From: Accumulibacter sp.
GTDB taxonomy: Bacteria > Pseudomonadota > Gammaproteobacteria > Burkholderiales > Rhodocyclaceae
Length of the DNA: 50,013 nucleotides
NCBI RefSeq assembly: GCF_023806625.1
Contig: NZ_JAMTDX010000004.1
Coordinates: 1-50,013, forward strand
Direction: 5' to 3'
The notes below the pieces were generated by a model. That model was not told the DNA's origin. It was given only the letters and a program-made list of their open reading frames with translations, and did not search any database. Both the position numbers and the translations under genes were made by a program. Positions 2-27,767 of this stretch are shown here, in pieces; within the stretch, counting starts at the first letter, position 1, and each line of letters begins with the position of its first letter.

Positions 2-3000
2 CAGGGCTCCACTTATCGAAGAGCCTTTGCTGTCCAAACAAACGGGGCCACCTCTAACCACAAGGCGGATGCTACGGTGCTTTCGCGCTTCGACTACAGC
101 TACGACAGTCGCGGCCGGCGCATCGGCATGGGCACCCTCGACGGTGCCTGGACCTACACCTACGACGACATCGGGCAACTCACCCATGGCGTCTTCGCCT
201 CGACCAACCCGGCGATCCCGGACCAGGATCTGCTGTATGTCTATGACGCGATGGGCAACCGCATCCGCACCGTCGAGAACGGCGTCACCACGGCGTACAC
301 GACCAACAACCTCAACCAGTACACGCAGGTGGGCAATACGACCTATGCCTTCGACGCCGACGGCAACCTGATTTCGGAGACCTCGCCGTCCGGGACCGTG
401 CTTTACAGCTATGACGACGAGAACCGGCTGATTGCCGTGCAGCAGGGTGCGGATGCGTGGGCATACAGCTACGACGCGTTCAGCCAGCGGGTTGCGACCA
501 GTCACAACGGGGTTGTTACACGATACACGATCGATCCCGTTGGGTTGGGCAATGTGGTCGGTGAATACGATGCAGTGGGAAGTCTCATCGCAGGCTACGA
601 CTACGGATTCGGCTTGTTGTCACAGAATACCAGCGGGACGACGGCGTGGTATACGTTTGATGCGATCGGCAGTTCGGATGCTCTGACTGGGTCGATCGGC
701 AACGTATTGGGCACGTATTCATATACCCCGTTCGGAAGCATTGCATATCAGTCTGGCGCGATCCAAAACCCCTTCCGTTTTGTAGCTGAGTTTGGTGTTA
801 GGAGCGAGGCAGGCGGGTCGATCTACATGAGAGCAAGATACTATCAAACGGAAACCGGAAGATTCACGCAAGCAGACCCCATTGGAATACTAAGCGGCAG
901 CGTAAACTCATACAGTTACGCCGAGAATGGTCCTACAGACGCCATTGATCCTCTTGGGTTGGAGAAGAGCTACGTTACTGGAATTCCCGGCATTCCAAGG
1001 AAGTATTTTCGTATCAATTACGATTTTTTCAGCGACAAGAGACTTGGACTTGGTTCGCAGATGGGGAGGATACTTCGGGTTGACTTTGGCAAATTTCACT
1101 TACTGGCAGAACGTAAACTCATTGGAAAGGTTGCTGCGAGGTGGGTTCCGATAATTGCTCCAATAACTGCCGGTTGGGGAATTGGAGAAACGGCTGGAAA
1201 TCTAATGTACGATTTACTTAACCCCGAGGACGCTGGGAATTGGGTGGATTGGTTAGGTGGGCCGATGTTCCCAGGGATACCGAAACCACCCGATGTCCCG
1301 GGCCCTGGGGGCGGATGGGGAATTCCAGGCTCAGTTGACCCCAACCAAAAACTCGGCCCCGCCGGTTTCGGCACTGCGTCCTACATCAGCTCATCCATCA
1401 CGCTTCCCTACCGAATCGACTTCGAGAACGACCCCACCGCCACCGCCCCCGCCCAGATCGTCACCATCACCGACCAACTCGACCCCGACCTCGACTGGTC
1501 CACCTTCGCGCTGACCGAAATCGGCTTCGGCGACCACCTGATCGCCATCCCCGCCAGCGCCCCGCACTTCGAGACCACCGTCCCGGTGCACTACAACGGC
1601 CAGGACTTCGACGTCCAGATCGAGGCCGGCATCAACCTCGCCACCGGCCAGGTCTATGCCCACTTCTACTCGATCGACCCGGACACCAGCCTGCCGCCCG
1701 ATGTGCTCACCGGCTTCCTGCCGCCCGAAGACGGCACCGGTCGCGGCATGGGCCATGTTTCCTACCTCATCGACCCGAAACCCGGCCTCGCCACCGGTAC
1801 CCAGATCAGGAACATCGCCCTGATCTCCTTCGACGGCCAGCCGTGGATCGCCACCAACCAGATCGACCCGCACAACCCGGCCGCCGGCACCGACCCGGCC
1901 AAGGACGCCCTCAACACCATCGACGCCGGCGCCCCGACCAGCGCCGTGCAACCGCTGCCGCCGACGCGCACGCGCCCCGACTTCCTCGTCCAGTGGACCG
2001 CCGCCGACGACGCCGGCGGCTCCGGCGTCGCCAGCCACGACATCTACGTCGCCACCGACGGCGGCAGCTATGTCCTCTGGAAGGACGACATCACCGCCAC
2101 CTCCGCCACCTTCACCGGTCAGGCCGGCCACAGCTACGCCTTCTACAGCGTCGCGCAGGACCACGTCGGCAACACCGAAGTCGCGCCGGCGACGCCCGAC
2201 GCCACCACCCAGGTCGTTGACGGCCTCGCCGTCACCGCCGTTGCCACCGATGCAAGTGGCGCCGCGATCCGCTTCAACCGCCCGTTCGACCCCGTCACCC
2301 TCAACCTCTACGCCACCGAAACCGGTGGCCAGGGCCCGGCCGACGTCACGCTCGTCGGCGCCACCACCGGCGCCGTCACCGGCTCGCTCGTACTCGACGA
2401 CGACCTCCAGGGTTTCCGTTTCGTCAGGACCGGCGGCCCGCTGGCGCCTGATACCTACACGCTCACACTGCGCAGCGCCGCCAACGGCGTCATCGACACC
2501 CTCGGCCGCCTCCTCGACGGCGACGACGACGGCACCCCCGGTGGCGACTCCGTTACGACCCTCACGGTCGCCGGGCCATTGCCGCGCGTGCTCTCGCTGC
2601 CCGACGTCGTGCGCGGCCCGGGGCAGCCGGTCAACATCCCGGCCACCGTCAGCGGCATCCCGATCCGTCTCAGCGACGGCAGCGGCGTCGAGTCGCTCGA
2701 GTTCACCCTGAACTACGACCCGACCCTGCTCACGATCAGCGACTCCACGCTCGCGGCCGGCCTTCCCGCCGGCAGCACCCTCGTCGCCAACCTCACCGTC
2801 GCCGGCCAACTGCGCGTCGCGATGTCCTTCCCGACGCCTCTCGCCGCCGGTGCACAGGATCTGCTCACCCTCACCGCCGCCGTCCCGGCGACGGCCCCCT
2901 ACCGGGCCAAGCAGGTCCTCGACCTCGCCGACGTCTCGATCAACGAAGGCGCCTTGGCGGCGGTTGCCGACGACGCCGTGCACCTCGTCGCCCATTTCGG

Positions 3001-6000
3001 CGACACCACCGGCAACGGTTCCTACAGCTCGCTCGACGGTCAGCGCGTGCTGCGTCAGGCCGTCGGACTCGACAGCGGCTTTGCCGCCTACCCGCTCGCC
3101 GACCCGGTGCTGGTCGCCGACATCACCGGCAACGGCGCCGTCAGTTCGCTCGACGCCACCCGCATCATCCAGGAAGCGGTTGGCATCGACCGGCCCGAGA
3201 TCCCGCCGCTGCCGGTTCCGGCGCTTCCCATCACCCCGGCCGGGGCCGACCCCTACGTGCACATCCCGACCAACCTCAGCGGCATTCCGGGCAGCGTCAT
3301 CACCGTCCCGGTACTGATCGATGACGCCGTCGGACTCGAAGCGGCCGACCTGCGGCTCGTCTACGACCCGGCACTGCTCGAAGTCGTCGCCGTGCGTGCC
3401 GGCTTGGTGACCACCGGTGCAACGATCGTCACCAACCCGACCCCGGCCGACAGCGCCACCGGAGCGCTCACCGTTGGCCTGGCGCTCACCACCCCGCGCC
3501 CGGCGGGCGGTGGCAGCCTGCTCGAGATTGATTTCCGGATCAGGCCCACGGCAACCTCGGGTGCCACGGCGCTGAACCTGACCAGGGTCAGCCTCAACGA
3601 GGACGGGCTGGTCCTGACGCCGCAGCCGGTGCCGGGGCCCGATGGCAGCGATGGCCTGCTGACCATCCTGGGGGCCGGCAACCGCGCGCCGATCGCCGCG
3701 CCCGACGACTACGCGACCGACGAGGACACCCCGCTGACCATCGTCGCCCCCGGCGTGCTCGGTAACGACAGCGACGTCGACGGCGATCCGCTGACCGCCT
3801 CGCTGGTCAACGGGCCCGCGCACGGGACGCTCAGCCTCGACCCCGACGGCAGCTTCGTCTATCGTCCTTCCGCTGACTACTCCGGGCCGGACAGTTTCCG
3901 TTACCAGTCGTTCGGCGGGGTCGAGCCGAGCACGATCGCCGTCGTGAGCCTGAACGTCAACCCGGTCAACGACGCCCCGACGCTCGATCCGCCGGCGTCG
4001 CTGATCGTCGACGAGGGCACGCTTCTCGAATTCCGCATCCTCGCCAGCGATGTCGAGAACGACGCGCTGACCTTCAGCCTCGACGCCGCTCCGGTCGGTG
4101 CGACGATCGACGCCGATACGGGTCTCTTTGCGTGGACGGCGGCCGACGGGCCGGCGACCAGCCAGGTTGTCGTTCGCGTCACCGACGCGCTGGGGGCCTT
4201 CAGCACCGGCGCGTTCGAGATCCTCGTCCGCGACGTCGCTCCGACGCTGCTGCTGAGTGGAGAGGCCAGCGTCGCGGCCGGTCAGCCCTACACGCTGGGC
4301 CTCTCGGTCAGCGACCCGGGGGCCGACAGCGTGACCGAATGGCGGGTCAACTGGGGCGACGGCAACGCCGAACGGATTTCCGGGGATCGCTCGGTGGCGA
4401 CGCACACCTATGCCGCCACCGGCGCCTTCACCGTCACCGCCGTGGCCTCCGACGAGGACGGCAGCTATCCGGCCAACGCACTCGATGTGTGGGTCACCGA
4501 ACCGGAGACGCTTCGGGTCAGCGCGTTCACCCCGACGGCCAGCGGCTTCCACGCGCGTTTCAACCGGGCGATCGATGCGCCGGCGCTCAACCTTTACGAC
4601 AGCGAGAACGCCGGGCTCGGTGCTCCCGACGTCACGCTCGTCGGGACGGCGACCGGTGCCGTCCGCGGTTCGCTGATCGTCGACGCCGACGGCGCGGGGA
4701 TCAGCCTGATCCGTAGCGGCGGGCCGCTGCCCGCGGACGATTACACGGTGCGTCTGGGCAGCGGCGCGATGGCTGTTCATGACCTCGCCGGGCGAGCCCT
4801 CGACGGCGACGCGGACGGACTCGCCGGAGACGCCTTCGAGTCCTCCTTCACCGCGGCCGACGCGGGCCTGACGGTGAGCCTGCCCGACGTCGTTCGCGGG
4901 CCGGGCCAGCCGGCTGATCTCGGCGCGCCGTCGCTGGGCGGCGCGCTGCCGGTCTGGCTGTCCGACGGGAGCGGAGTGACCGAGGTCGAGTTCAGCCTCC
5001 GCTACGACCCGGCGATTCTCGACGTTCAAGGCGTTTCGGCTGGCGCGCAACTGCCGGCCGGAACGACGATCGAGCGGCTCGCCGCTCCTGCCGGGCTGCT
5101 GTCGGTGCGCCTCACCAGCCCGACCGAACTCGCTGCCGGCCGCCTCCGGCTGCTCGACATCGCGGCCCGCGTTCCGGACAGCGCAGCCTACGGCGCCAAG
5201 CAGGTTCTCGACCTCGAAGACGTCCGGGTCAATGGGCGGAGCGGGACCGGCGACGACGCGCTGCAACTCGTCGCCTATCTCGGCGATACCAGCGGCGACG
5301 CCAGCTACGGCACGCTCGACGCGCAGAAAGTGCAGCGCGTCCTCGTCAGGCTCGACAGCGGCTTCGCGGCGTACCCGAACGTCGATCCGCTGCTCGTCGC
5401 CGACGTCAACGCCAGCGGCACGCTGACCTCGATCGACGCCAGCCGGTTGCTCCAGGAAGTCGGCTACCTCTCCGGCGCGAGCTCCACGGACCGCCTCGAG
5501 ATTCCGCCGATTCCGGCCGGAGTCGGTCCGCTGCAGTTCGCCGGTCCCGATCCGCTGGTCGACATCGCGGTCCAGGCCAGCGGCGAACCCGGCGAGGTGG
5601 TCACGGTTCCGGTGCGCATCGACACCGCGGCGGGCCTCGAAAGCGTCCAGCTCACCGTCGCCTACGACGCCAGCCGCTTCGAGCTCGTCGGCGTTCGTCG
5701 CGGTTCGCTGGCCGGCGACTTCGCGTGGTTCGTCGCCGGCAGCGAAGCCGGGCGGATCACCGTCGACATGGCCCGGCTCGACGCGCTCGCGGGCGGTTCG
5801 GGCAACCTGCTCGAGATCGACCTGCGCATCCGCGACGACGCGGCTCCGGGAATCGCGGCGATCGACCTGCAGTACGCTCGGCTCAACGACGGCCACCTGA
5901 CGCTCGGCGTCTCGCCGCAGGCCGGCCTCGACGCGACCGACGGTCAGGTGACGGTCGGGTCGGCCCGGGCCGAGCGATTCCCGGCGATCGGGTCAGGGGA

Positions 6001-6391
6001 TGCCGCGCTCTCGGCGAGTCGCTCCGGACCGGCGAGCGCGACGGTCGCTGCGGGCGCTGCGGCGAGTGCGCGGAAGACACCGACGCTGGGCGGGGCGGCG
6101 CTGCCTGGCGCGGTATGGCCCGCGCCGGCCGCGCTGGCCGAGGTTCCGGCGATTCCGTCGGGCGACGACGGCAGGATGGCCGTCTCGCCGGTGGTCGACC
6201 TGGCCGGTCACTTCGATGCGCCGGCGGCGGTCAGCGCGTCGATCGCCGACGAGGTGCGAAACAAGCCGTGGCTCAGGGACTATCTCGGCAACGGCGGCGA
6301 GACGGGCAAGGGCGCAGCGAAGCCCGCTTTTCGGGTCAAGCTGCCGGTCGTTCCGGTGACCAGGCCGCCGGTGACGACGGCGATCCTCTGA
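2..6391 (+). CDS. Giant RHS / cohesin-dockerin / cadherin-like mosaic surface protein (5' partial)
   Basis: The frame is open to the first base, so the true start lies outside the window; 2129 residues are visible. From 5' to 3' it shows RHS/YD repeats and the RHS core end (MRARYYQTETGRF...DPIG, then DPLGLE near nt 946-963). An AT-richer stretch with a possible membrane helix follows to about nt 1330. Next come a domain opening DPNQKLGPAGFG (nt 1335-1900), cohesin-like folds near 2590-2990, 3240-3670, 4870-5270 and 5545-5970, and dockerin-like calcium-loop pairs near 2998-3200 and 5278-5470 (GDTTGNGSYSSLD, GDTSGDASYGTLD). Cadherin-like repeats (3684-4240) and a PKD-like repeat (4245-4500) lie between. 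The last 140 residues are Ala/Pro-rich with no sorting signal I recognise. RHS proteins usually end in a short toxin; a 1.7-kilo-residue adhesin-like extension is unusual. A role in adhesion or surface display is inferred. Domain calls are by eye. Confidence 0.85.
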   Translation, partial: QGSTYRRAFAVQTNGATSNHKADATVLSRFDYSYDSRGRRIGMGTLDGAWTYTYDDIGQLTHGVFASTNPAIPDQDLLYVYDAMGNRIRTVENGVTTAYTTNNLNQYTQVGNTTYAFDADGNLISETSPSGTVLYSYDDENRLIAVQQGADAWAYSYDAFSQRVATSHNGVVTRYTIDPVGLGNVVGEYDAVGSLIAGYDYGFGLLSQNTSGTTAWYTFDAIGSSDALTGSIGNVLGTYSYTPFGSIAYQSGAIQNPFRFVAEFGVRSEAGGSIYMRARYYQTETGRFTQADPIGILSGSVNSYSYAENGPTDAIDPLGLEKSYVTGIPGIPRKYFRINYDFFSDKRLGLGSQMGRILRVDFGKFHLLAERKLIGKVAARWVPIIAPITAGWGIGETAGNLMYDLLNPEDAGNWVDWLGGPMFPGIPKPPDVPGPGGGWGIPGSVDPNQKLGPAGFGTASYISSSITLPYRIDFENDPTATAPAQIVTITDQLDPDLDWSTFALTEIGFGDHLIAIPASAPHFETTVPVHYNGQDFDVQIEAGINLATGQVYAHFYSIDPDTSLPPDVLTGFLPPEDGTGRGMGHVSYLIDPKPGLATGTQIRNIALISFDGQPWIATNQIDPHNPAAGTDPAKDALNTIDAGAPTSAVQPLPPTRTRPDFLVQWTAADDAGGSGVASHDIYVATDGGSYVLWKDDITATSATFTGQAGHSYAFYSVAQDHVGNTEVAPATPDATTQVVDGLAVTAVATDASGAAIRFNRPFDPVTLNLYATETGGQGPADVTLVGATTGAVTGSLVLDDDLQGFRFVRTGGPLAPDTYTLTLRSAANGVIDTLGRLLDGDDDGTPGGDSVTTLTVAGPLPRVLSLPDVVRGPGQPVNIPATVSGIPIRLSDGSGVESLEFTLNYDPTLLTISDSTLAAGLPAGSTLVANLTVAGQLRVAMSFPTPLAAGAQDLLTLTAAVPATAPYRAKQVLDLADVSINEGALAAVADDAVHLVAHFGDTTGNGSYSSLDGQRVLRQAVGLDSGFAAYPLADPVLVADITGNGAVSSLDATRIIQEAVGIDRPEIPPLPVPALPITPAGADPYVHIPTNLSGIPGSVITVPVLIDDAVGLEAADLRLVYDPALLEVVAVRAGLVTTGATIVTNPTPADSATGALTVGLALTTPRPAGGGSLLEIDFRIRPTATSGATALNLTRVSLNEDGLVLTPQPVPGPDGSDGLLTILGAGNRAPIAAPDDYATDEDTPLTIVAPGVLGNDSDVDGDPLTASLVNGPAHGTLSLDPDGSFVYRPSADYSGPDSFRYQSFGGVEPSTIAVVSLNVNPVNDAPTLDPPASLIVDEGTLLEFRILASDVENDALTFSLDAAPVGATIDADTGLFAWTAADGPATSQVVVRVTDALGAFSTGAFEILVRDVAPTLLLSGEASVAAGQPYTLGLSVSDPGADSVTEWRVNWGDGNAERISGDRSVATHTYAATGAFTVTAVASDEDGSYPANALDVWVTEPETLRVSAFTPTASGFHARFNRAIDAPALNLYDSENAGLGAPDVTLVGTATGAVRGSLIVDADGAGISLIRSGGPLPADDYTVRLGSGAMAVHDLAGRALDGDADGLAGDAFESSFTAADAGLTVSLPDVVRGPGQPADLGAPSLGGALPVWLSDGSGVTEVEFSLRYDPAILDVQGVSAGAQLPAGTTIERLAAPAGLLSVRLTSPTELAAGRLRLLDIAARVPDSAAYGAKQVLDLEDVRVNGRSGTGDDALQLVAYLGDTSGDASYGTLDAQKVQRVLVRLDSGFAAYPNVDPLLVADVNASGTLTSIDASRLLQEVGYLSGASSTDRLEIPPIPAGVGPLQFAGPDPLVDIAVQASGEPGEVVTVPVRIDTAAGLESVQLTVAYDASRFELVGVRRGSLAGDFAWFVAGSEAGRITVDMARLDALAGGSGNLLEIDLRIRDDAAPGIAAIDLQYARLNDGHLTLGVSPQAGLDATDGQVTVGSARAERFPAIGSGDAALSASRSGPASATVAAGAAASARKTPTLGGAALPGAVWPAPAALAEVPAIPSGDDGRMAVSPVVDLAGHFDAPAAVSASIADEVRNKPWLRDYLGNGGETGKGAAKPAFRVKLPVVPVTRPPVTTAIL
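965..1330 (+). other. AT-richer variable segment directly after the RHS core
   Basis: Base composition falls visibly here, to about half G+C by eye, against very G+C-rich sequence from nt 1380 onward. It encodes about 120 residues after DPLGLE, including a hydrophobic stretch (WVPIIAPITAGWGIG). In RHS proteins this is where exchangeable C-terminal toxin tips begin. The reading frame continues without a stop into the cohesin-rich part, so the tip is either an internal toxin-like module or a scar of tip replacement. No toxin family is recognisable. Confidence 0.5.
2220..5960 (+). repeat. Duplicated multi-domain unit inside the giant gene (about 2220-3680 and 4500-5960)
   Basis: Two blocks of about 1.46 kb encode the same domain order: a 120-residue module (RFNRPFDPVTLNLY / RFNRAIDAPALNLY), a cohesin introduced by LPDVVRGPGQP, a dockerin-like pair and a second cohesin. 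The cadherin- and PKD-like repeats sit between the copies. The copies have diverged in sequence, so the duplication is not recent. Confidence 0.75.
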
Positions 6392-7196: not shown

Positions 7197-7508
7197 ATGA
7201 ACCGGAGCGACAAGCAGGAAAACGCCGTACCGGCGCCGGCCGAGGGCGCCGCGCCGCAGATGCCGAGAATCCGTTGGGACACCGAGGGGTTGAAGAGCTC
7301 CTACGCCAACTTCGCCAACGCCAACAGCACGCGCGAGGAAGTCGTCCTCAACTTCGGCGTGAACAACAGCTGGGATCGCGCACAGTCGGAAATCACGATC
7401 GAACTGTCGCACCGGATCATGCTCAGCCCGTTCGCTGCGAAGCGCCTGTCGACGATGCTCGCGCAGCTGATCGCCGAGTACGAGCAGCGCTACGGCGAAC
7501 TTACGTAG
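7197..7508 (+). CDS. DUF3467 family protein
   Basis: 103 residues, small and soluble. WDTEGLKSSYANFANANST, EEVVLNFGVNN and the ILSPFAAKRL-like run (MLSPFAAKRLSTML) are the conserved core of DUF3467, a short family of unknown function. The start is fixed by GGGGAGG at 7181-7187, nine bases before the ATG. It opens a run of five same-strand genes that continues with HlyD-type, M50-type and SecA-like proteins. Its position suggests an accessory or chaperone-like role in that system, but this is inference. The family call is strong; the function is unknown. Confidence 0.85.
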   Translation: MNRSDKQENAVPAPAEGAAPQMPRIRWDTEGLKSSYANFANANSTREEVVLNFGVNNSWDRAQSEITIELSHRIMLSPFAAKRLSTMLAQLIAEYEQRYGELT

Positions 7509-7592
7509 CGCGGGCAGTCGTCGCGGGGAGGGTGCCGCGCCAGGCGTGTGTCGCGCTCGCGACGCTGCGCCCGCAGCGGCCGCGCGGCGTAA

Positions 7593-9479
7593 ATGTTGGG
7601 AGGCAGTCCATTGCAGTCGGCTGCGCAGCGTTCCGCTGAGACTTCGTCGGGCGAGGCGTCGGGCGGCGCCGAGGGTTCAGCTCACGCTGGACGCCAGCGC
7701 GACGACTCCGCATGGAGCGCCTTTGCCTCTTCGCGGAACGCGGCCGAGTTCTGTATCCACTGGCTGGAAGTGCAGTGTCTGCAGATCGGCGACGTCCGGG
7801 CGGCGCTGCTGCTCCTCGAGCAGGGCGGTGGCACTTTCGTCCCGGCGGCGATCTGGCCATCGATGGACAGCAACGTCGGCCATCTGGCGCCGGCCGCCGA
7901 GCAGTGCCTCGGCGAGCGGCGCGGGCTCGTGCTGCGTGGTCAGGCCGGGGCACTGGTCGTCGTCGCGTATCCGGTCGATGTCGAAGGCGAGCTGCACGGC
8001 GCGGTCGTTCTCGACGTCGCCGATCGCGCGGATGGGTCGCTGCAGCAGGTGCTGCGCCAACTGCACTGGGGAATCGGCTGGCTGGCGACGCTGTTCCTGC
8101 GCACGCGCAGGCTCGCCGACGCTCTGGCGCTCGAACGGGCGCGCAGCGCGCTCGATGTGCTCGCGGTCGCCGGCGAGCATCACCGGCTCGGGCCGATGGC
8201 GTTGGCGCTGGTCAACGACCTGGCCAGTCGCTTCGCCTGCGAGCGCGTCGCGCTCGGCATCGATCGTCGCGGCCGCGCACGGCTGCAGGCGCTGTCGCAC
8301 TCGGCGTTCTTCGAGAAGAAAAGCCAGTTCGTCGCCGCGCTCGAGAACGCGATGGACGAGGCGCTCGACCAGCGGTGCAGCGTCGCGTATCCGCCGCTCG
8401 GCGAAGGCGGCGGAGGAATCGCCATCGCGCACCGTGACTTCGCGGGGTCGCGGGCGGTCTGCTCGGTGGTGCTGGCGAGCCGCGGCGCCGGCATCGGCGT
8501 ACTGAGCTTCGAGCGCCAGGAGCCGTTCACGGCCGACGATCTCTGCGCCTTCGAGGCCGTCGCCGCGCTGCTCGGGCCGCTGCTCGACAGCCGGCTCGAA
8601 GTGCACCGCTGGTTCGCCGGCCGGCTGGCCGACAAGCTGCGCGGCACCTGGGCGCATCTGCGCAACCCGCGGCGGCCGGGGCTGCGCGTCGCGCTGGTCG
8701 TCGCCACGGTGTTGCTCCTCGGCGTCTTCTTCCTCGAAGGCGAGTACCGGGTCAGCGCCAGGGCGGTCGTCGAGGGCGAGGTGCAGCGCGCGGCGGTCGC
8801 ACCGTTCGACGGCTTCCTGCGCGAGGCGCCAGTGCGCGCCGGCTTCGTCGTCCGCCAGGGACAGGTGCTGGCCAGGCTCGACGACCGGGACCTGCTCGTC
8901 GAGCGCCAGCGCCATCTTTCCGAGCGCGAGCAGCACGGCGCGCGCTATCGCGATGCGCTGGCCAGGCACGAGCGGGCCAACGCCAACGTCGCGCTGGCCC
9001 AGATGCAGCAGGCCGAGGCGCAACTCGTGCTTGTCGAGGAGAAACTCGCCCGCGCCGAGGTCGTCGCGCCATTCGACGGCATCGTCGTCTCGGGCGACCT
9101 GAGCCAGCTGCTCGGTTCCCCGGTCGAACAGGGCAAGCTGCTCTTCGAGATCGCTCCGCTCGACGCGTACCGGGTGATCCTCAAGGTCGAGGATCGCGAC
9201 ATCCGCGATGTGCGCGCGGGGCAGACGGGCAAGCTCGTGCTCGCCGGTCTGGCTGGCGAAGTGCTCGACTTCGAGGTGCACAACATCGCCGTCGCCGAGC
9301 CCGAGGACGGCAAGAACGTCTTCCGCGTCGAGGCCCGGCTCGCGCGCAGCGACCTCGAGCTGCGTCCGGGAATGGAAGGGGTCGGCAAGATCAGCGCCGG
9401 CGAGCAGAGCTACGCGTGGATCTGGACGCACCGACTGACCGACTGGCTGCGCCTCCAGGCGTGGACCTGGCTGCCGTAG
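7593..9479 (+). CDS. GAF domain-HlyD family membrane-fusion protein
   Basis: 628 residues. Residues about 50-180 are a cytoplasmic region with no clear family, and about 190-335 resemble a GAF fold. One membrane helix follows near residues 365-382 (VALVVATVLLLGVFF). Residues 385-628 form an HlyD/MFP adaptor: a first lipoyl half (VAPFDGFLREAPVRAG), a short coiled-coil hairpin, and a second half (VVAPFDGIVVSGD). An in-frame TAA directly precedes the ATG, so the protein cannot start earlier; no good ribosome site is visible. HlyD adaptors bridge an inner-membrane exporter and an outer-membrane channel. A cytoplasmic sensor-like head on the adaptor is unusual and could couple export to a signal. 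The next gene starts 22 bases downstream. Confidence 0.8.
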   Translation: MLGGSPLQSAAQRSAETSSGEASGGAEGSAHAGRQRDDSAWSAFASSRNAAEFCIHWLEVQCLQIGDVRAALLLLEQGGGTFVPAAIWPSMDSNVGHLAPAAEQCLGERRGLVLRGQAGALVVVAYPVDVEGELHGAVVLDVADRADGSLQQVLRQLHWGIGWLATLFLRTRRLADALALERARSALDVLAVAGEHHRLGPMALALVNDLASRFACERVALGIDRRGRARLQALSHSAFFEKKSQFVAALENAMDEALDQRCSVAYPPLGEGGGGIAIAHRDFAGSRAVCSVVLASRGAGIGVLSFERQEPFTADDLCAFEAVAALLGPLLDSRLEVHRWFAGRLADKLRGTWAHLRNPRRPGLRVALVVATVLLLGVFFLEGEYRVSARAVVEGEVQRAAVAPFDGFLREAPVRAGFVVRQGQVLARLDDRDLLVERQRHLSEREQHGARYRDALARHERANANVALAQMQQAEAQLVLVEEKLARAEVVAPFDGIVVSGDLSQLLGSPVEQGKLLFEIAPLDAYRVILKVEDRDIRDVRAGQTGKLVLAGLAGEVLDFEVHNIAVAEPEDGKNVFRVEARLARSDLELRPGMEGVGKISAGEQSYAWIWTHRLTDWLRLQAWTWLP

Positions 9480-9501
9480 GGCGCCGCGCCGGTCGCCGAT
9501 C

Positions 9502-11649
9502 ATGGCCGCCCCGTTCCTCAGTGCTTCGTGGTATCGCGTCGCCGGGCTGCGTCCCGAGCTGCGCGCGCATGCACGAATCCAGCGCCAGCGTTTCCGCGGC
9601 CAGGCCTGGTACGTGGTGCACGACCGTGCTTCGGGCAAGCTGCACCGCTTCAGCCCGGCAGCGTACGGCGTGATCCAGCTGCTCGACGGCCGGCGGACCG
9701 TCGACGAGGTCTGGCGCGAGGTCGCCGCCCGCTCGGGTAGCGAAGCGCCGACCCAGGACGAGGTGATCCGCCTGCTCGCGCAGCTGCACGCCGCTGACCT
9801 GCTGCAGGCCGATCTGCCACCCGACGTCGACGAACTCGCCGAGCGCGGCAGTCAGCAGAAACGGCGCAAGCTTCTGCAGAGTTTCATCAACCCGATGTCG
9901 ATGCGCATCCCGCTCTGGGACCCCGACGACTTCCTGAGCCGGACCTGGCCGCTGGTGAGGCCGCTGGCCGGCTGGCTCGGGCTGGTCGTCTGGCTGCTCG
10001 CCGTTCTGCCGGGGATCGTCCTCGCCGGCGTGCACTGGCCGGAGCTGACCGCGAACCTCAGCGACCAGGTTCTGGCGACGAAGAACCTGTTGCTGCTCTG
10101 GCTGATCTACCCGCTGATCAAGGCGCTGCACGAGCTCGCCCACGGCTACGCGGTGAAGTCGGGCGACGGCGAGGTGCACGAGATGGGCCTGATGCTGCTC
10201 GTCCTGGCCCCGGTACCCTACGTCGATGCGACGGCTTCGGGGGCCTTCCGGAGCAAGTGGCGGCGGGCCTTCGTCGGCGCCGCGGGGATGCTCGTCGAGC
10301 TCTTCCTCGCCGGAATCGCGATGATCGTCTGGGCGCTCGTCGAACCGGGGCTCGTCCGCTCGATCGCCTTCAACGTCGTGCTCGTCGGCGGCGCTTCGAC
10401 GCTGCTGTTCAACGGCAATCCGCTGCTCCGCTACGACGGCTATTACGTGCTCTCCGACCTGATCGAAATCCCGAATCTCGGCGGTCGCTCGAACCAGTAC
10501 TGGCAGTGGCTGGCCAAGCGCCACCTGTTCGGCGTGACCGCGGTCGAGCGGCCGGTGGCCACGGCCGGAGAGCGGCGCTGGTTCTCGTTCTACGGCGCGG
10601 CGTCGTTCGTCTACCGCACGCTGGTGATGATCGCGATCGCCCTGTTCATCGCCGGCGAATTCTTCTTCGTCGGCGTCGTCCTGGCGATCTGGGCGGCGAT
10701 CACGATGTTCGTCGTACCGCTCGTCAAAGCGATCGCCTACATCCAGTCGAGCCCCGAACTGCAGCGCACGCGAACGCGCGCCAGGCTCGTCGCCTACGGA
10801 GGCCTCGCCGCGCTGGCGCTGTTCGTGTTGCTCGTGCCGCTGCCGCTGCGCACGCACGCCGAGGGCGTCGTCTGGGTGCCCGAGAACGCCGAGGTGCGCA
10901 CGGGCGCCGACGGCTTCGTCGAGCAGCTGTTCGTCGCTCCCGACGCGCAGGTCGCCGCCGGCGAGGTGCTGGTCGTCACCGCCGCGCCTGAACTGAGCGC
11001 CGAAGTCGCGGAGGGTCAGGCGCGCGTCCGGCAGTTCGCCGTGCAGTACACAGCGTTGATGTTCGACGAGCGCGTGCAGGCCGCGGCGGTCCTCGAGGAC
11101 CTCCAGCGCGAGCGCGTCGCACTGGCTCGCGCCGAGGAGAAGCTCGCCTCGCTGGCCGTCGTCGCCGGCGTTCCCGGGGCGATCAAGCTGGCCCGGGCGC
11201 AGGACCTGCCCGGGCGCTACGTGAAGAAGGGCGAGTTGCTCGGTTACATCGTCTCCGGACCGCCGCGGCTCGTCCGGGCAGTCGTCAGGCAGGACGACAT
11301 CGCGCTGGTTCGCGAGCGGCGAACGGCGGTCGAAGTGAAGATCACCGACCGACTCGCGCACACCTACCCGGCGCGCGTGCTGCGCGAAGTTCCCGGCGGC
11401 CACGATCGCCTGCCGCACAAGGCGCTGGCGCTCGCTGGCGGCGGCCCGCACGGTACCGATCCGCGCGATCCGGACGGGCTCAGGTCGCTGCAGCGGCTGT
11501 TCCAGTTCGACCTCGAGTTGCCCGAAGACGTCGGCGCCGTGGACATCGGCACGCGCGTCTATGTGCGCTTTCATCACCACGCCGAGCCGCTGGCCGCGCA
11601 GTGGGGAAGGCGCCTGCGGCAACTCTTCCTGGCGCGCTTCAATGTCTAG
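9502..11649 (+). CDS. PqqD-like / M50 metallopeptidase / HlyD-like membrane protein
   Basis: 715 residues. Residues about 40-115 resemble a PqqD/RiPP-recognition winged helix (GKLHRFSPAAYGVIQLL...DEVIRLLAQLHAADLL). Residues about 150-430 form a polytopic M50 (site-2-protease-like) domain. HELAHG at 210-215 supplies the zinc-binding HExxH motif, and NGNPLLRYDGYY near 304-315 has the position and form of the conserved Asp motif. Further helices follow, then a HlyD-like periplasmic part from about residue 450 (VPENAEVRTGADGFVEQLF). Proteins of this layout are annotated as putative peptide zinc metalloproteases and accompany peptide export or maturation. Its last 8 bases overlap the SecA-like gene (ATGTCTAG), implying translational coupling. 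Substrate unknown; the PqqD-like head suggests it binds a leader peptide (inference). Confidence 0.82.
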   Translation: MAAPFLSASWYRVAGLRPELRAHARIQRQRFRGQAWYVVHDRASGKLHRFSPAAYGVIQLLDGRRTVDEVWREVAARSGSEAPTQDEVIRLLAQLHAADLLQADLPPDVDELAERGSQQKRRKLLQSFINPMSMRIPLWDPDDFLSRTWPLVRPLAGWLGLVVWLLAVLPGIVLAGVHWPELTANLSDQVLATKNLLLLWLIYPLIKALHELAHGYAVKSGDGEVHEMGLMLLVLAPVPYVDATASGAFRSKWRRAFVGAAGMLVELFLAGIAMIVWALVEPGLVRSIAFNVVLVGGASTLLFNGNPLLRYDGYYVLSDLIEIPNLGGRSNQYWQWLAKRHLFGVTAVERPVATAGERRWFSFYGAASFVYRTLVMIAIALFIAGEFFFVGVVLAIWAAITMFVVPLVKAIAYIQSSPELQRTRTRARLVAYGGLAALALFVLLVPLPLRTHAEGVVWVPENAEVRTGADGFVEQLFVAPDAQVAAGEVLVVTAAPELSAEVAEGQARVRQFAVQYTALMFDERVQAAAVLEDLQRERVALARAEEKLASLAVVAGVPGAIKLARAQDLPGRYVKKGELLGYIVSGPPRLVRAVVRQDDIALVRERRTAVEVKITDRLAHTYPARVLREVPGGHDRLPHKALALAGGGPHGTDPRDPDGLRSLQRLFQFDLELPEDVGAVDIGTRVYVRFHHHAEPLAAQWGRRLRQLFLARFNV

Positions 11650-13651
11650 GGCGCTGCTCGCCAGCTGGCGGATCGACGAGTTCGCGCACGCAGCCCATGC
11701 CGAGCGCCGCGATGTCGACGACGACCGGTTCGACCGCCTGATCGCCGGTTTGCTCGGCCGCTGGGCACAGCGCGGGTCGACGCTGCGCGTGCGTCGGCTC
11801 TGGAAGTTCGCCGAACGAGTCGAGGCGCTCGGCGACCAACTCGCGGCGCTCGACAGCGCCGGTCTGCGCGGGCGCATCGCCGCCGTCCGCGGCATTCTGG
11901 CCAGCGAGGGGCCGGTCGAGGCCCACGTCGTCGAGTGCTTCGCGCTGGTCCGCGAGGTGTGCTCGCGGCTCGTCGGCCAGCGCCACTATCCGGTGCAGCT
12001 GATTGGTGGCTACGCGCTGCTGCGCGGGTCGCTGGCCGAGATGCACACCGGCGAGGGCAAGACGCTGACCGCGGTCCTGCCGGCGGTGACCGTCGCGCTG
12101 GCCGGCGCGCCGGTGCACGTGATCACGGTCAACGAGTATCTGGCCCGCCGCGACGCCGAGCACCTCGGTCCGGTGTACGAATTCTTCGGGCTGCGCGTCG
12201 GGCTGGTCGTTCCCGGGCAGGACAACGCGCAGCGCGCCGCGGCCTACGCCTGCGCGGTGACGTATTGCGTCAACAAGGATCTCGTCTTCGATTATCTGCG
12301 CGACCGGATCAGCCAGAAGCGCGGTCCGGGCGGTCCGCGCGCGGCGATCGAGCGCTGGCTCGCCGGGACAGGCCGGCGCACCGGCCAGCCTGCGCTGCTT
12401 CGCGGTCTGTTCTACGCAATCGTCGACGAAGCCGACAGCGTGCTGATCGACGAAGCGCGAACGCCGCTGATCATTTCCAGCGACGTCGAGGATCCGCACG
12501 GGCGGGGACTCTACGAGCAGGCGCTGGCGCTCGCGGCCAGCCTGAACGAGCCAGAGCACTATGTGCTGCGGCCGAATGAGCGCAGCGTCGAGCTGACCGA
12601 CGCCGGGCGCGCGGCGGTCGCCGGGTTCGCCTGCGGGCAGACCGGGTTGTGGACGATCGCTCGCGCGCGCGAGGAACTCGTCGAGCAGGCGCTGTCGGCG
12701 CGGCACCTCTTCCATCGCGACCGGCAGTACCTGGTCAGCGACGGCAAGGTGCAGATCGTCGACGAATATACCGGCCGGGTGATGGCCGACCGTTCGTGGG
12801 AGCGAGGGCTGCACCAGATGATCGAAGTCAAGGAGGGGCTCGATCCTTCGCAGCGCCGCGAGACGATTTCGCGGATCACCTACCAGCGCTTCTTCAGGCG
12901 CTACCTGTGCCTGGCCGGGATGAGCGGCACGGCGACCGAGGTGGCGCCCGAGCTGCGCTCCATCTACGCGCTCGACGTGCTGCGCATTCCGCCGAACCGG
13001 CCGGTGATCCGGCGCGACCTCGGCCAGCGCGTGTTCGCCGATGGCGATCGGCGCTGGGCCGCGGTCGTCGAGCGGGCGGCGGCGATGCGCGCTGCCGGTC
13101 GCGCCGTGCTGATCGGGACGCGTTCGGTCGCCGCCTCCGAAGTGGCCAGCCGTTCGCTGGCCGCGGCGGGCCTCGCGCACGAGGTGCTCAACGCGCGCCA
13201 GGATGCGGACGAGGCGGCGATCATCGCGCAGGCCGGGCAGGCCGGGCGGATCACCGTGGCGACGAACATGGCCGGCCGCGGGACCGACATCGTCCTCGGT
13301 CCGGCGGTTCGCGAGGCCGGCGGGCTGCACGTGATCCTCACCGAGTACCACGACTCGGCGCGGATCGACCGCCAGCTGTTCGGTCGTGCCGGCCGCCAGG
13401 GCGACCCCGGATCGTGCGAGGCGATCGTCGCGCTCGACGACGAGCTGTTCGTCGCCCACGCCTCGCGGCTGCTTGGCTGGCTGCGCAGGCGGGTGTCGCC
13501 CGATGGACTGCTGCCGGCGCAGCTCGCCTGGCTGCTCAGGCGTCTGGCGCAGGGCGCGGCGGAAAGGCAGAATTCACGGATACGACGGCAGACGGTGGAG
13601 ATCGACAAGCGGGTGGCCAAGTCTCTGGCCTTTGCCGGGAGAGGGGAGTAG
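11642..13651 (+). CDS. Shortened SecA-like translocase ATPase
   Basis: 669 residues against about 900 for housekeeping SecA. The motor is intact: Walker A MHTGEGKT at residues 134-141, DEAD at 262-265 followed by SVLIDEARTPLIIS, GMSGTA, TNMAGRGTDIVLG and QLFGRAGRQGDPG. A preprotein-cross-linking-like region (HLFHRDRQYLVSDGKVQIVDE, EVKEGLDPS) is present. The chain ends at the start of the helical scaffold (ERQNSRIRRQTVEIDKRVAKSL), so the helical wing, C-terminal linker and zinc-binding tail are missing. The start is the ATG overlapping the M50 stop; a start at 11561 would lie inside that gene. It is therefore not the housekeeping SecA. It is probably the ATPase of the local export machine; whether it works with SecYEG is unknown. 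Confidence 0.85.
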   Translation: MSRALLASWRIDEFAHAAHAERRDVDDDRFDRLIAGLLGRWAQRGSTLRVRRLWKFAERVEALGDQLAALDSAGLRGRIAAVRGILASEGPVEAHVVECFALVREVCSRLVGQRHYPVQLIGGYALLRGSLAEMHTGEGKTLTAVLPAVTVALAGAPVHVITVNEYLARRDAEHLGPVYEFFGLRVGLVVPGQDNAQRAAAYACAVTYCVNKDLVFDYLRDRISQKRGPGGPRAAIERWLAGTGRRTGQPALLRGLFYAIVDEADSVLIDEARTPLIISSDVEDPHGRGLYEQALALAASLNEPEHYVLRPNERSVELTDAGRAAVAGFACGQTGLWTIARAREELVEQALSARHLFHRDRQYLVSDGKVQIVDEYTGRVMADRSWERGLHQMIEVKEGLDPSQRRETISRITYQRFFRRYLCLAGMSGTATEVAPELRSIYALDVLRIPPNRPVIRRDLGQRVFADGDRRWAAVVERAAAMRAAGRAVLIGTRSVAASEVASRSLAAAGLAHEVLNARQDADEAAIIAQAGQAGRITVATNMAGRGTDIVLGPAVREAGGLHVILTEYHDSARIDRQLFGRAGRQGDPGSCEAIVALDDELFVAHASRLLGWLRRRVSPDGLLPAQLAWLLRRLAQGAAERQNSRIRRQTVEIDKRVAKSLAFAGRGE

Positions 13652-13653
13652 GG

Positions 13654-14556
13654 ATGGCCAGTGACGGTACCCGGCGGTGGCGCCTGACGGTTCTCGCGCT
13701 GCTCGCCGCGGGCGGGGCCGGTGCCGGCGAGTTCGACTGCATCATCGAGCCGAGCAAGACGCTCGAGGTGCGTGCGGCGAGCGAGGGGCTGATCGAGAAG
13801 ATCTGGGTCGACCGCGGCGACCTGGTCAAGGCCGGCCAGGTGCTGGTGACCATCGACTCGGGAGTCGAGCGCGCCGCCGCCGACGCGGCGCGCTACCGGG
13901 CGACGATGCAGGGGCGAATCCGCAGCAGCGAGAGCCGCGTCGAGTTCTCGTCGGCCAAGTACCAGCGCCGCGAGAAGCTCGCCGGACAGTCGTTCATCTC
14001 GCTGCACGACCGCGACGAGGCGCTGACCGAGAAGAAGCTCGCCGAGGCCGAGCTGATCGAGGCGCGCGACGACCGCAAGCTCGCCGAGATCGAGTACCGC
14101 CGGCTTTCCGAGCAGTTGCGCCTGCGCACGATCAAGAGCCCGGTCGACGGCGTCGTCGTCGACCGCCTGCTCAACGCCGGCGAACTGGCCGACAACCGCG
14201 ATCTGCGCAAGCCGATCCTGCGTCTCGCCGACATCGGCACGCTCTACGTCGAGGTGCTGATGCCCAATGAGGCGTTCGGCCGGGTCACGCCGGGGCAGAG
14301 TGTCGAGGTCCTGCCCGAGGCTCCGGTCGGCGGGCGCCACAAGGCGACCGTCAAGGTCATCGACCGCGTCCATGACGCGGCCAGCGGGACCTTCGGCGTG
14401 CGCCTCGAACTGCCCAACCCCGGCCTCAAACTCCCCGCGGGAATCAAGTGCAAGGCGAGTTTTCCGGGCGTCGCCGGGCGCTCGTTCGCCAGCCCGGGGA
14501 GTGCGCCGCGCCCCGAAGCGAAGCCGAACGCCGTGCCCGCAGGCAGGCCGTCGTAG
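13654..14556 (+). CDS. Periplasmic adaptor (RND/HlyD-type membrane-fusion) protein
   Basis: 300 residues. A signal peptide covers about 1-25 (LTVLALLAAGGAGAG). A barrel-sandwich (lipoyl-like) domain follows (VRAASEGLIEKIWVDRGDLVKAGQVL), then a charged coiled-coil hairpin of about 90 residues, the second lipoyl half (IKSPVDGVVVDRLLNAGEL) and a beta-barrel region. GGGGAG lies just before the ATG, overlapping the end of the SecA-like gene; the ATG is 2 bases after that stop. It is the third HlyD-type module in the cluster and the only wholly periplasmic one. No TolC-type channel or ABC transporter is encoded nearby, so the outer-membrane exit must be elsewhere or not exist. Confidence 0.82.
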   Translation: MASDGTRRWRLTVLALLAAGGAGAGEFDCIIEPSKTLEVRAASEGLIEKIWVDRGDLVKAGQVLVTIDSGVERAAADAARYRATMQGRIRSSESRVEFSSAKYQRREKLAGQSFISLHDRDEALTEKKLAEAELIEARDDRKLAEIEYRRLSEQLRLRTIKSPVDGVVVDRLLNAGELADNRDLRKPILRLADIGTLYVEVLMPNEAFGRVTPGQSVEVLPEAPVGGRHKATVKVIDRVHDAASGTFGVRLELPNPGLKLPAGIKCKASFPGVAGRSFASPGSAPRPEAKPNAVPAGRPS

Positions 14557-25073: not shown

Positions 25074-27767
25074 ATGGCATCTCTGCCCGAAAACCCGCTG
25101 TCAGCCGACCTTGGCGACCCGGATCCACAGGAAACCCAGGAGTGGCGAGACGCGCTGAGCGGCGTGATCGACCAGGAGGGACCCGAGCGGGCGCACTTCC
25201 TGATCCAGGAAATGATTGCCCAGGCCCGGCACGAAGGAATCAACATCCCCTACAGCGCGACGACCGAGTACATCAACACGATTCCGGTCGATCAGCAGCC
25301 GAAGTACCCGGGGAACGCGGACATGGAAATCCGCATCCACAACTACATTCGCTGGAATGCGATGGCGATGGTCGTGCGCGCCAACCGGCGGAGCAACGTC
25401 GGTGGGCACATCGCCTCGTTCGCCTCGGCCGCGGCGCTCTACGACGTTGGCTTCTCGTGGTTCTGGCGCGCACCGACCGAGAGCCACGGCGGCGACCTGA
25501 TCTTCTTCCAGGGGCATTCGGTTCCCGGCGTCTATGCGCGCGCGCACCTGCTCGGGCGCCTGACTGACGAGCAGATGGACCGCTTCCGTCACGAGGTCGA
25601 CGGCCAGGGCGTCTCGTCGTATCCGCACCCCTGGCTGATGCCCGAGTTCTGGCAGTTCCCGACCGTGTCGATGGGCCTTGGACCGATCCAGGCGATCTAC
25701 CAGGCGCGGTTCATGAAGTACCTCGACAGCCGCGGCTTCATCAAAGCCGGCGACCGGAAGGTCTGGGCGTTCCTCGGCGACGGCGAAACCGACGAGGTCG
25801 AATCGCTCGGGGCGATCGGCCTGGCTGCGCGCGACCGGCTCGACAACCTGATCTTCGTGATCAACTGCAATCTGCAGCGTCTCGACGGGCCGGTCCGTGG
25901 CAACGGCAAGATCATCCAGGAACTCGAAGGCGTGTTCCGCGGCGCCGGCTGGAACGTCCTCAAGGTGATCTGGGGAACGAACTGGGACGCGCTGTTCCTC
26001 CGCGACAAGAAGGGATTGCTCAAGAAGCGGATGATGGAGATCGTCGATGGCGAGTACCAGACCTTCAAGGCCAAGAACGGCGCTTATGTCCGTGAGCACT
26101 TCTTCAACACCCCGGAACTCAGGGAACTCGTCGCCGACTGGACCGACGACCAGGTTTGGTCGCTGAATCGCGGCGGCCACGACATCTTCAAGATCTTCAG
26201 CGCGTACAAGAGCGCCTTCGAGCACAAGGGGCAGCCGACGCTCGTCCTCGCCAAGACGATCAAGGGCTACGGGATGGGCCAGGCCGGCGAGGCGATGAAC
26301 ATCTCGCATCAGCAGAAGAAGCTCGACTACGACGCGATCCGGCGTTTCCGCGATCGCTTCAGCCTGCCGGTGCGCGACGATCAGCTCGACGAGCTTCCCT
26401 ATCTCAAGTTCGCCGAGGGATCGCCCGAGCTGACCTATATGCGCCAGCGGCGGATGGACCTCGGCGGCTACCTGCCGAAGCGCCGACGGACGGCTGCGCC
26501 GCTCGAAATCCCCGAGCTGTCGGCGTTCGACGCGCTGCTCAGGGCTTCTGGCGAGGGTCGCGAGATCTCGACGACGATGGCCATCGTGCGTTTCCTGAAC
26601 ATCCTGCTCAAGGACCGCAAGGTCGGCCGGCACGTCGTGCCGATCGTTCCCGACGAATCGCGGACTTTCGGGATGGAGGGCCTGTTCCGCCAGATCGGTA
26701 TCTGGAACCCCGAGGGGCAGAAGTACGTTCCCGAGGACCATGATCAGCTGATGTTCTACAAGGAGTCGAAGGACGGGCAGGTGCTCCAGGAAGGGATCAA
26801 CGAAGCCGGCGCGATGAGCGACTGGATCGCCGCGGCGACTTCGTACTCGGTTCACGGCGTGCAGATGATCCCCTTTTACATTTTCTACTCGATGTTCGGG
26901 CTGCAGCGGACGATGGACCTCTGCTGGGCGGCGGCCGACCAGCGCGCGCGCGGCTTCCTGATCGGCGGGACGGCCGGCAGGACGACGCTCAACGGCGAGG
27001 GCCTGCAGCACGAGGACGGACATTCGCTGGTCCTCTCGAGCGTGATTCCGAACTGCCTGAGCTACGATCCGACCTTCGCCTTCGAGATCGCCGTGATCAT
27101 GCGCGAGGGGATGCGCCGGATGTACCAGGAGCAGGAGGACATCTTCTACTACGTCACGGTGATGAACGAGAACTACGAGCATCCCGAGATGCCCGCGGGT
27201 GCCGAGGCGGACATTCTCAGGGGGATGTACCTGTTCCGCCGCGGCCAGTCGTCGGATACCAATCCGGTCGCGCCGAGGGTCCAGCTGCTCGGCTCGGGGA
27301 CGATCTTCCGCGAGGTCATCGCCGCAGCCGAAATGCTCAAGAAGGACTGGGGAGTCGACGCCGACCTCTGGGGCTGCCCGAGCTTCACCGAGCTGGCGCG
27401 TGACGGCTACGCGGCGCAGCGCTGGAACCTGCTCAATCCGACGGCCAGGGCGAAGCTCTCGCACGTCGAGAACTGTCTCGACGACACGCGTGGCCCGATC
27501 GTCGCGGCCAGCGACTACGTCCGCCTGTTCGCCGAGCAGATTCGCCCCTTCGTCCACCGGCGCTATGTCGTTCTCGGTACCGACGGCTTCGGGCGGTCGG
27601 ACACTCGCGAGAAGCTCAGGCACTTCTTCGAGGTCGATCGTTACTGGGTGACGCTGGCAGCGCTCAAGGCGCTGGCCGACGACGGCGAGATCGATCGCGG
27701 CAGGGCTGCCGAAGCGATCGCCCGCTACGGCATCGACGTCAACAAGCCGAATCCGGTTACCGTCTAG
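25074..27767 (+). CDS. aceE: Pyruvate dehydrogenase E1 component, homodimeric type
   Basis: 897 residues, close to the 887 of the E. coli enzyme. It decarboxylates pyruvate with thiamine diphosphate and acetylates the lipoyl group of E2. The N-terminus (QETQEWRDALSGVIDQEG, TTEYINTIPVDQQPKYPG) and the TPP-binding segment starting GDGETDEVESLGAIGLA and ending in VINCN are typical. So are IKGYGMGQAGE and the conserved central segments (VPIVPDESRTFGMEGLFRQ). AGGAGATC upstream of ATG 25074 sets the start. It is the first gene of an aceE-aceF-lpdA operon, with 12 bases to aceF, and supplies acetyl-CoA. The protein is full length, with no sign of damage. Confidence 0.97.
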   Translation: MASLPENPLSADLGDPDPQETQEWRDALSGVIDQEGPERAHFLIQEMIAQARHEGINIPYSATTEYINTIPVDQQPKYPGNADMEIRIHNYIRWNAMAMVVRANRRSNVGGHIASFASAAALYDVGFSWFWRAPTESHGGDLIFFQGHSVPGVYARAHLLGRLTDEQMDRFRHEVDGQGVSSYPHPWLMPEFWQFPTVSMGLGPIQAIYQARFMKYLDSRGFIKAGDRKVWAFLGDGETDEVESLGAIGLAARDRLDNLIFVINCNLQRLDGPVRGNGKIIQELEGVFRGAGWNVLKVIWGTNWDALFLRDKKGLLKKRMMEIVDGEYQTFKAKNGAYVREHFFNTPELRELVADWTDDQVWSLNRGGHDIFKIFSAYKSAFEHKGQPTLVLAKTIKGYGMGQAGEAMNISHQQKKLDYDAIRRFRDRFSLPVRDDQLDELPYLKFAEGSPELTYMRQRRMDLGGYLPKRRRTAAPLEIPELSAFDALLRASGEGREISTTMAIVRFLNILLKDRKVGRHVVPIVPDESRTFGMEGLFRQIGIWNPEGQKYVPEDHDQLMFYKESKDGQVLQEGINEAGAMSDWIAAATSYSVHGVQMIPFYIFYSMFGLQRTMDLCWAAADQRARGFLIGGTAGRTTLNGEGLQHEDGHSLVLSSVIPNCLSYDPTFAFEIAVIMREGMRRMYQEQEDIFYYVTVMNENYEHPEMPAGAEADILRGMYLFRRGQSSDTNPVAPRVQLLGSGTIFREVIAAAEMLKKDWGVDADLWGCPSFTELARDGYAAQRWNLLNPTARAKLSHVENCLDDTRGPIVAASDYVRLFAEQIRPFVHRRYVVLGTDGFGRSDTREKLRHFFEVDRYWVTLAALKALADDGEIDRGRAAEAIARYGIDVNKPNPVTV

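What the first reader, a model, noticed from the sequence alone, without database searches (positions are those of the whole stretch)
7197..14556. Candidate undescribed export system: truncated SecA-like ATPase with M50/PqqD-HlyD and two HlyD adaptors
Five tightly spaced genes (gaps of 84, 22, -8 and 2 bases) encode a DUF3467 protein, a GAF-HlyD adaptor, a PqqD-like/M50/HlyD protein, a SecA-like ATPase lacking the helical wing and C-terminal tail, and a periplasmic adaptor. No ABC ATPase or TolC channel is present, so the SecA-like motor may be the energy source. SecA and HlyD/M50 modules are known separately; their linkage here is unfamiliar to me. A giant cohesin-rich protein and a cohesin/PEP-CTERM protein lie just upstream as possible cargo.
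Basis: partly seen in the sequence, partly recalled or inferred. Interest (0 to 1): 0.85.

Follow-up and report, generated by a model that had tools for sequence, protein, structure and literature searches.

The report
Exporter locus for giant surface proteins
A group of neighbouring genes already noticed in 2015, built around a shortened version of the cell's protein-export motor, is found beside and together with giant surface proteins that share a distinctive starting tag, which suggests what this unstudied machinery exports.

Summary
The locus recurs across many bacteria, so it is no degraded SecA copy. But it is not undescribed: Kamneva, Poudel and Ward (2015, PMC4452313) reported the same module (wing-less SecA, M50, GAF-HlyD, HlyD) and the same idea that SecA replaces the ABC motor; its role was 'completely unknown'.

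What I add is a probable cargo. Giant proteins with the N-terminal LEPR-XLL motif (NCBIfam NF012209, frames up to 14,768 codons) co-occur with the SecA-like gene: 16 of 22 positive against 14 of 347 other genomes in a class sample; 38 of 50 named positive genomes. In 19 of those 38 a LEPR giant lies directly beside the operon, often a few bases upstream. A type I secretion ATPase shows no such association. The giants begin with a basic leader without a hydrophobic stretch; the M50 protein has a PqqD/RRE-like domain, a natural leader binder.

Operons lacking SecA-like but keeping M50-HlyD and LEPR giants show that M50-HlyD is the core and the SecA-like part dispensable. The window's own giant has lost its N-terminus at a contig end, so its leader is unchecked. 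Cargo is well supported by genomics; mechanism is inferred; nothing is shown experimentally.

The parts
2..6391 (+). C-terminal part of a giant repetitive protein (RHS, DUF7619, Big_9/cadherin, PKD, cohesin, dockerin); probable cargo, N-terminus lost at the contig end
   Evidence: Pfam; contig start; similar to the giant upstream of the operon in L061 (46% over 667 aa), which is in phase with a LEPR-XLL frame of 7824 codons
7197..7508 (+). DUF3467 protein, optional member of the locus (24 of 80 loci)
   Evidence: PF11950 72.9 bits
7593..9479 (+). GAF-HlyD adaptor
   Evidence: HlyD_3 and HlyD_D23; GAF in 18 of 20 relatives; upstream in 71 of 80 loci
9502..11649 (+). PqqD/RRE-like domain + M50 membrane metallopeptidase + HlyD periplasmic part
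   Evidence: PF05402 (10 of 20 relatives), Peptidase_M50 in 19 of 20 relatives (not in the window protein itself), HExxH and D312 invariant, model pLDDT 83 with MexA/MacA-like C-terminal part
11642..13651 (+). SecA-like ATPase: NBD1, PPXD, NBD2 and one scaffold helix; no wing, two-helix finger or tail
   Evidence: model pLDDT 84, TM 0.80-0.81 (query-normalised) to SecY-bound SecA 5eul and 6itc; profile aligns to residues 7-605 of B. subtilis SecA chains
13654..14556 (+). periplasmic adaptor of the HlyD / RND membrane-fusion type
   Evidence: HlyD_D23 70.7 bits, TIGR01730 129 bits above cut-off; downstream on the same strand in 64 of 80 loci

Best explanation
The locus encodes an envelope-spanning export system whose cargo is a class of giant repetitive surface proteins with an N-terminal LEPR-XLL leader. 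Proposed working: the PqqD-like domain of the M50 protein binds the basic, non-hydrophobic leader in the cytoplasm (inferred); the wing-less SecA, where present, grips and feeds the chain using ATP (inferred); the M50 membrane part receives it and may clip the leader (inferred from the intact zinc site); the HlyD parts of three proteins form the periplasmic conduit to a TolC-type outer-membrane channel (inferred from HlyD homology and from TolC-family genes beside some relatives). Shown by genomics: conserved operon, truncated SecA, co-occurrence and adjacency with LEPR giants. Not shown: any transport, binding or cleavage step.
For: Conserved operon: M50 upstream 74, GAF-HlyD upstream 71, HlyD downstream 64, all four in order 56 of 80 loci. 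LEPR-XLL co-occurrence: 61 relatives, 22 of 22 SecA-like-positive genomes over the curated LEPR cut-off against 9 of 39 negative (22 of 22 against 2 of 39 at 21.8 bits, a threshold I set after seeing the data); class sample of 369, 16 of 22 against 14 of 347, and for M50 23 of 30 against 7 of 339; 38 of 50 named positive genomes, including 11 of 11 alphaproteobacterial ones, against 3 of 289 in an alphaproteobacterial sample, one of the three being the centre genome itself. Adjacency: of the 38, 26 have a LEPR hit on the operon's contig (lengths matched) and in 19 an in-phase giant ORF lies beside the operon (gaps -220 to 1517 bp). G113 has HlyD, LEPR giant, GAF-HlyD, M50, SecA-like in one run. 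Control: type I secretion ATPase TIGR03375 over cut-off in 6 of 24 LEPR-positive and 11 of 37 LEPR-negative genomes, p 0.78. Leader: 18 of 20 fetched N-termini read, highest 19-residue hydropathy 0.63-1.31. G010 has a SecA-like remnant with two stop codons and no LEPR match over the cut-off.
Against: 12 of 50 named SecA-like-positive genomes have no LEPR match at E 0.01; two of these have a neighbouring giant with a variant motif (L099, L106), but L099 gets no NF012209 match and L106 only 10.8 bits, and five or more show no giant nearby in the stretch held. In the class sample 14 LEPR-positive genomes were SecA-like-negative (12 after recheck). Five have M50-HlyD and LEPR without SecA-like, so SecA-like cannot be essential everywhere. 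G136 and G273 have LEPR without M50. G012 and G019 have LEPR without SecA-like or M50. The RRE reading rests on modest PqqD scores (10 of 20 members; PDB PqqD E 0.034). The Fisher p-values ignore shared ancestry. The window's own giant cannot be checked for the leader, and no LEPR motif is in the window.
Confidence: 0.62

Rival explanations
1. The SecA-like protein works with SecYEG like SecA2: it moves LEPR giants through the ordinary channel, and the M50/HlyD proteins act only afterwards in the periplasm and outer membrane.
For: The model superposes best on SecY-bound SecA (TM 0.80-0.81); PPXD and nucleotide-binding domains are retained in 20 of 20; accessory SecA2 proteins are a precedent (PMC7503281, passages seen).
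Against: It lacks the wing, two-helix finger and tail; the wing contacts SecY in solved complexes according to PMC7503281. The leader has no hydrophobic core. The M50 part has its own multi-helix membrane region.
Confidence: 0.25
2. The SecA-like protein is not the motor but a targeting or holding factor; the M50-HlyD core exports LEPR giants by another energy source (housekeeping SecA or the proton gradient).
For: SecA-less operons with GAF-HlyD, M50, HlyD and a LEPR giant (L136, L137, L138, L140) in genomes where only housekeeping SecA was found; also G284 with LEPR giant, TolC-family gene, two HlyD genes and M50.
Against: All 24 class-sample genomes with SecA-like also carry the M50 core, and the nucleotide-binding motifs are invariant in the alignment (GEGKT, DEAD-like), as expected of a working ATPase.
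Confidence: 0.3
3. LEPR giants are ordinary type I secretion substrates and the SecA/M50/HlyD locus does something else (for example small-molecule or peptide export), the association being shared ecology or large genomes.
For: HlyD modules are typical of type I secretion and efflux; some giants carry RTX repeats (L059, L098).
Against: TIGR03375 is not associated with LEPR (6 of 24 against 11 of 37) and not found in the window's own genome at E 1e-150 (15 of 79 candidates scored). Only that one type I family was tested. Direct adjacency in 19 of 38 genomes is hard to explain by ecology.
Confidence: 0.12
4. The SecA-like gene is a degraded housekeeping copy.
For: It is truncated relative to housekeeping SecA.
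Against: Conserved length, invariant motifs and gene order over several phyla, one side of a fully supported branch against nine housekeeping SecAs; the 2015 paper reached the same view (PMC4452313).
Confidence: 0.01

Closest known systems
Secondary SecA_DEAD / type I secretion-related module (Kamneva, Poudel and Ward 2015, PMC4452313)
   Same: Secondary SecA lacking SecA_SW, with GAF-HlyD, Peptidase_M50 and HlyD neighbours; same proposal that SecA_DEAD supplies the ATPase and M50 the pore.
   Different: The paper names no cargo and does not mention LEPR, PqqD, giant proteins, cohesin or DUF3467 in its main text; it calls the biological role completely unknown.
LEPR-XLL domain proteins (NCBIfam NF012209, LEPR-8K)
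   Same: The N-terminal motif found here on the giants next to the operon.
   Different: A sequence model only; I saw its name and cut-off, not its notes. No exporter is linked to it in the two papers that mention it (one passage each seen).
Accessory SecA2 systems
   Same: A second SecA dedicated to special cargo; reduced wing domain and no tail in many SecA2 (PMC7503281 passages).
   Different: Here the whole wing/scaffold module incl. two-helix finger is missing and the partners are M50 and HlyD proteins.
Type I secretion (HlyB-HlyD-TolC)
   Same: HlyD-type adaptors; TolC-family (OEP) genes adjacent in some relatives (L067, L048, L091).
   Different: No ABC ATPase among the 16 window proteins scanned; N-terminal rather than C-terminal signal proposed.
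Daptide / PqqD-associated intramembrane metalloproteases (NF041824)
   Same: The M50 protein's best NCBIfam hit (150 bits), PqqD-like plus HExxH membrane peptidase.
   Different: Far below the family cut-off of 300 bits; extra HlyD part; no peptide-modification genes seen here.

Membership tests
Kamneva 2015 secondary SecA_DEAD module | Second SecA_DEAD protein lacking most of SecA_SW | tested here: met
Kamneva 2015 secondary SecA_DEAD module | Linked GAF-HlyD, Peptidase_M50 and HlyD genes | tested here: met
Preprotein translocase SecA (housekeeping) | Full-length with wing/scaffold domain; over NCBIfam SecA cut-offs | tested here: not met
   591 bits against cut-off 814 (PRK12904) and all other SecA models below cut-off; SecA_SW absent
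SecA2 (accessory) | Over a SecA2 model's cut-off | tested here: not met
   four SecA2 models at 396-554 bits, cut-offs 725-1100; no SecA2 was in my tree, so phylogenetic placement against SecA2 was not tested
Type I secretion system | ABC ATPase partner | tested here: not met
   none among 16 window proteins scanned; not every window ORF was scanned
LEPR-XLL protein (the window's giant) | N-terminal LEPR-XLL motif | not testable with these tools
   N-terminus lies beyond the contig start; no LEPR motif in the window; own genome has two strong LEPR frames elsewhere (C68, C108)
PqqD / RRE | PqqD profile match and RRE-like fold | tested here: inconclusive
   window 28.7 bits above cut-off; 10 of 20 members; 3 strands + 3 helices in the model; PDB PqqD E 0.034; leader binding not tested
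Active M50 metallopeptidase | HExxH and downstream Asp | tested here: met
   H210, E211, H214, D312 invariant in 20 of 20; activity not tested. A cruder pattern over 74 ORFs found HExxH in 68 (fixed search window, fragments included)

The most novel reading that the evidence does not exclude
A distinct secretion pathway, neither type I nor Sec: an N-terminal, non-hydrophobic LEPR-XLL leader on giant surface proteins is read by a PqqD/RRE-type domain fused to a membrane M50 peptidase and HlyD conduit, as RiPP leaders are read, and a finger-less, wing-less SecA threads chains of up to some 15,000 residues through it; M50-HlyD is the core, SecA-like an add-on motor.
Probability: 0.35. Interest if true: 0.87.

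Novelty: new member of a known kind. Interest (0 to 1): 0.6.

Why it matters
The module has been known since 2015 without a cargo. If LEPR-XLL giants are its cargo, a widespread class of very large surface proteins gains an export route, an orphan motif gains a meaning as an export leader, and SecA gains a role outside the usual wing- and finger-dependent mechanism. It becomes testable in cultivable carriers (Thioclava, Methylobacterium, Mesorhizobium) with one gene deletion and one blot.

Tried and rejected
Rejected: degraded SecA (conserved over several phyla); cohesin/PEP-CTERM protein as conserved cargo (no hit in 80 loci); a link of LEPR giants to type I ATPase TIGR03375; a universal C-terminal signal on the giants (tails differ). 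Tried without use: looking for LEPR in the window (none); a tree of 30 rows in which two housekeeping rows were wrong antisense ORFs (L026, L030) and the careful search did not finish; repeated as a quick tree of 29 rows with these two corrected and the distant G113 row left out. An adjacency tally on 15 loci chosen by eye as probably on the same contig was biased, so I matched contig lengths for the remaining LEPR hits and recounted over all 38 genomes. G404 (664.9 bits, 901-codon frame) was counted as housekeeping and G318 (644.8 bits, 741 codons) as SecA-like, by frame length. Nitrospirota, Planctomycetota and Myxococcota background rates were not measured.
Full report
WHAT IS THERE. The window lies in a Candidatus Accumulibacter genome (named relatives; own contig G000:C4). 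The SecA-like protein (669 aa) has SecA_DEAD, PPXD and P-loop domains but no SecA_SW; over 20 relatives SecA_SW is matched weakly in 2, while the housekeeping SecA of the same genome has it at 247.7 bits. A profile of the family aligns to residues 7-605 of B. subtilis SecA chains of 778-844 residues, so wing, two-helix finger and tail are missing (domain borders recalled and, for C. difficile SecA2, seen in PMC7503281 passages). The model (pLDDT 84) fits SecY-bound SecA best by TM-score (0.80-0.81).

THE LOCUS IS CONSERVED. One scan of genome contigs gave 80 loci in alpha-, beta- and gammaproteobacteria, Nitrospira, Myxococcota and Desulfocapsa. M50 lies upstream on the same strand in 74 of 80, GAF-HlyD in 71, HlyD downstream in 64, all four in order in 56. 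Of the six without a full M50, five begin within 217 bases of SecA-like at a contig edge and L034 holds a fragment. DUF3467 is in 24 of 80; the cohesin/PEP-CTERM protein in none. A quick tree puts 20 SecA-like proteins and nine housekeeping SecAs on two sides of a branch with SH-aLRT 100.

IT IS KNOWN. Kamneva, Poudel and Ward (PMC4452313; parts 1-4 of 7 read) described secondary SecA_DEAD proteins without SecA_SW in loci with GAF-HlyD, M50 and HlyD proteins, an operon in Methylobacterium extorquens AM1, and proposed SecA_DEAD as ATPase and M50 as pore. They call the role completely unknown, and their main text holds no mention of LEPR, PqqD, giant proteins, cohesin or DUF3467. Nine of ten paper searches showed no follow-up in the listings I saw; subscription journals and preprints are not held.

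THE CARGO. Relatives carry giant ORFs with the motif LEPRxLL near the N-terminus beside the operon, recognised by NCBIfam NF012209. In the 61 relatives, 22 of 22 SecA-like-positive and 9 of 39 negative genomes are over the curated cut-off of 17 bits; at 21.8 bits (chosen afterwards) 22 of 22 and 2 of 39; by genus at that threshold 5 of 5 and 0 of 29. In a class sample of 369 genomes, LEPR (E 0.003) is in 16 of 22 SecA-like-positive and 14 of 347 other genomes, and in 23 of 30 genomes with the M50 core against 7 of 339. Of 50 named SecA-like-positive genomes 38 have LEPR. In an alphaproteobacterial sample LEPR is in 3 of 289 and SecA-like in 1 of 289, the centre genome, which is one of the three; the 11 alphaproteobacterial genomes among the 50 all have LEPR (class by genus name, my knowledge). 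Type I ATPase TIGR03375 shows no association (6 of 24 against 11 of 37, p 0.78).

ADJACENCY. In three more (L079, L081, L108) the giant is divergent some 7 kb away. In L069, L090, L094 and L109 it is farther off, and 12 genomes have no LEPR hit on the operon's contig. In G113 the giant lies inside the run HlyD, giant, GAF-HlyD, M50, SecA-like. The window's giant resembles the one upstream of the operon in L061 (46% over 667 aa; shared DUF7619, cohesin and PKD), which is in phase with a LEPR frame of 7824 codons. So the window's giant is probably the end of such a protein; its start is lost.

THE LEADER. I fetched 20 LEPR N-termini; my pattern found the motif in 18. It follows a basic stretch, typically ...f-e-a-LEPRLLLSADP, and the most hydrophobic 19 residues score 0.63-1.31 (Kyte-Doolittle), below what I recall as usual for signal or membrane segments. 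No signal-peptide predictor was available and start codons are uncertain. The M50 protein begins with a PqqD-like domain, a fold that binds leader peptides in RiPP pathways (established knowledge); here this is a guess.

SECA-LIKE IS NOT UNIVERSAL. Five class-sample genomes with M50 core and LEPR have only housekeeping SecA (G112, G250, G266, G350, G409). In G266, G409 and G350 the order is GAF-HlyD, M50, HlyD, LEPR giant; in G250 one GGDEF/EAL gene lies between; in G112 M50 is at a contig end. G284 has LEPR giant, TolC-family gene, two HlyD genes and a distant M50. No alternative ATPase was seen among nine neighbouring proteins of three of these loci plus L138. TolC-family genes also lie beside the operon in L067, L048 and L091.

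AGAINST. 12 of 50 positive genomes lack LEPR at E 0.01; L099 and L106 have giants with variant motifs next door that NF012209 does not recognise over its cut-off, and others show no giant in the stretch held. G136 and G273 have LEPR without M50; G012 and G019 have LEPR without SecA-like or M50. Statistics ignore ancestry. All functional steps are inferred.

VERDICT. A real, conserved, previously described but functionally unknown module; the new content is a well-supported cargo class and a testable leader hypothesis.

Noticed in passing
G010:C1:2223591-2224145: A SecA-like remnant with two TAG stops in a genome of the same genus; that genome has no M50 match and no LEPR match over the cut-off, consistent with joint loss.
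   Followed up: partly
L099:12965-15964 and L106:13014-21833: Giants directly downstream of the operon with variant leaders (LEERRLFS, LEPRVLFS), so the leader family is probably wider than NF012209; I recall similar starts in planctomycete surface proteins, not checked.
   Followed up: partly
L037, L061, L088, L107 and window giant tails: Several giants end with a loosely similar W..(F/Y)..(L).. then (L/F)(R/K)(V/L) motif, others with a short hydrophobic stretch and basic tail; no common C-terminal signal.
   Followed up: no
G300, G436, G451: Some genomes carry 5 to 10 LEPR hits, several in frames of 8,000-14,000 codons, with one or two operons: one exporter may serve many giants.
   Followed up: no
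window 25074-30875: Pyruvate dehydrogenase complex genes E1, E2, E3; ordinary.
   Followed up: no
window 42239-44389: A protein fusing a urea-transporter domain to a Peptidase_M23 domain.
   Followed up: no
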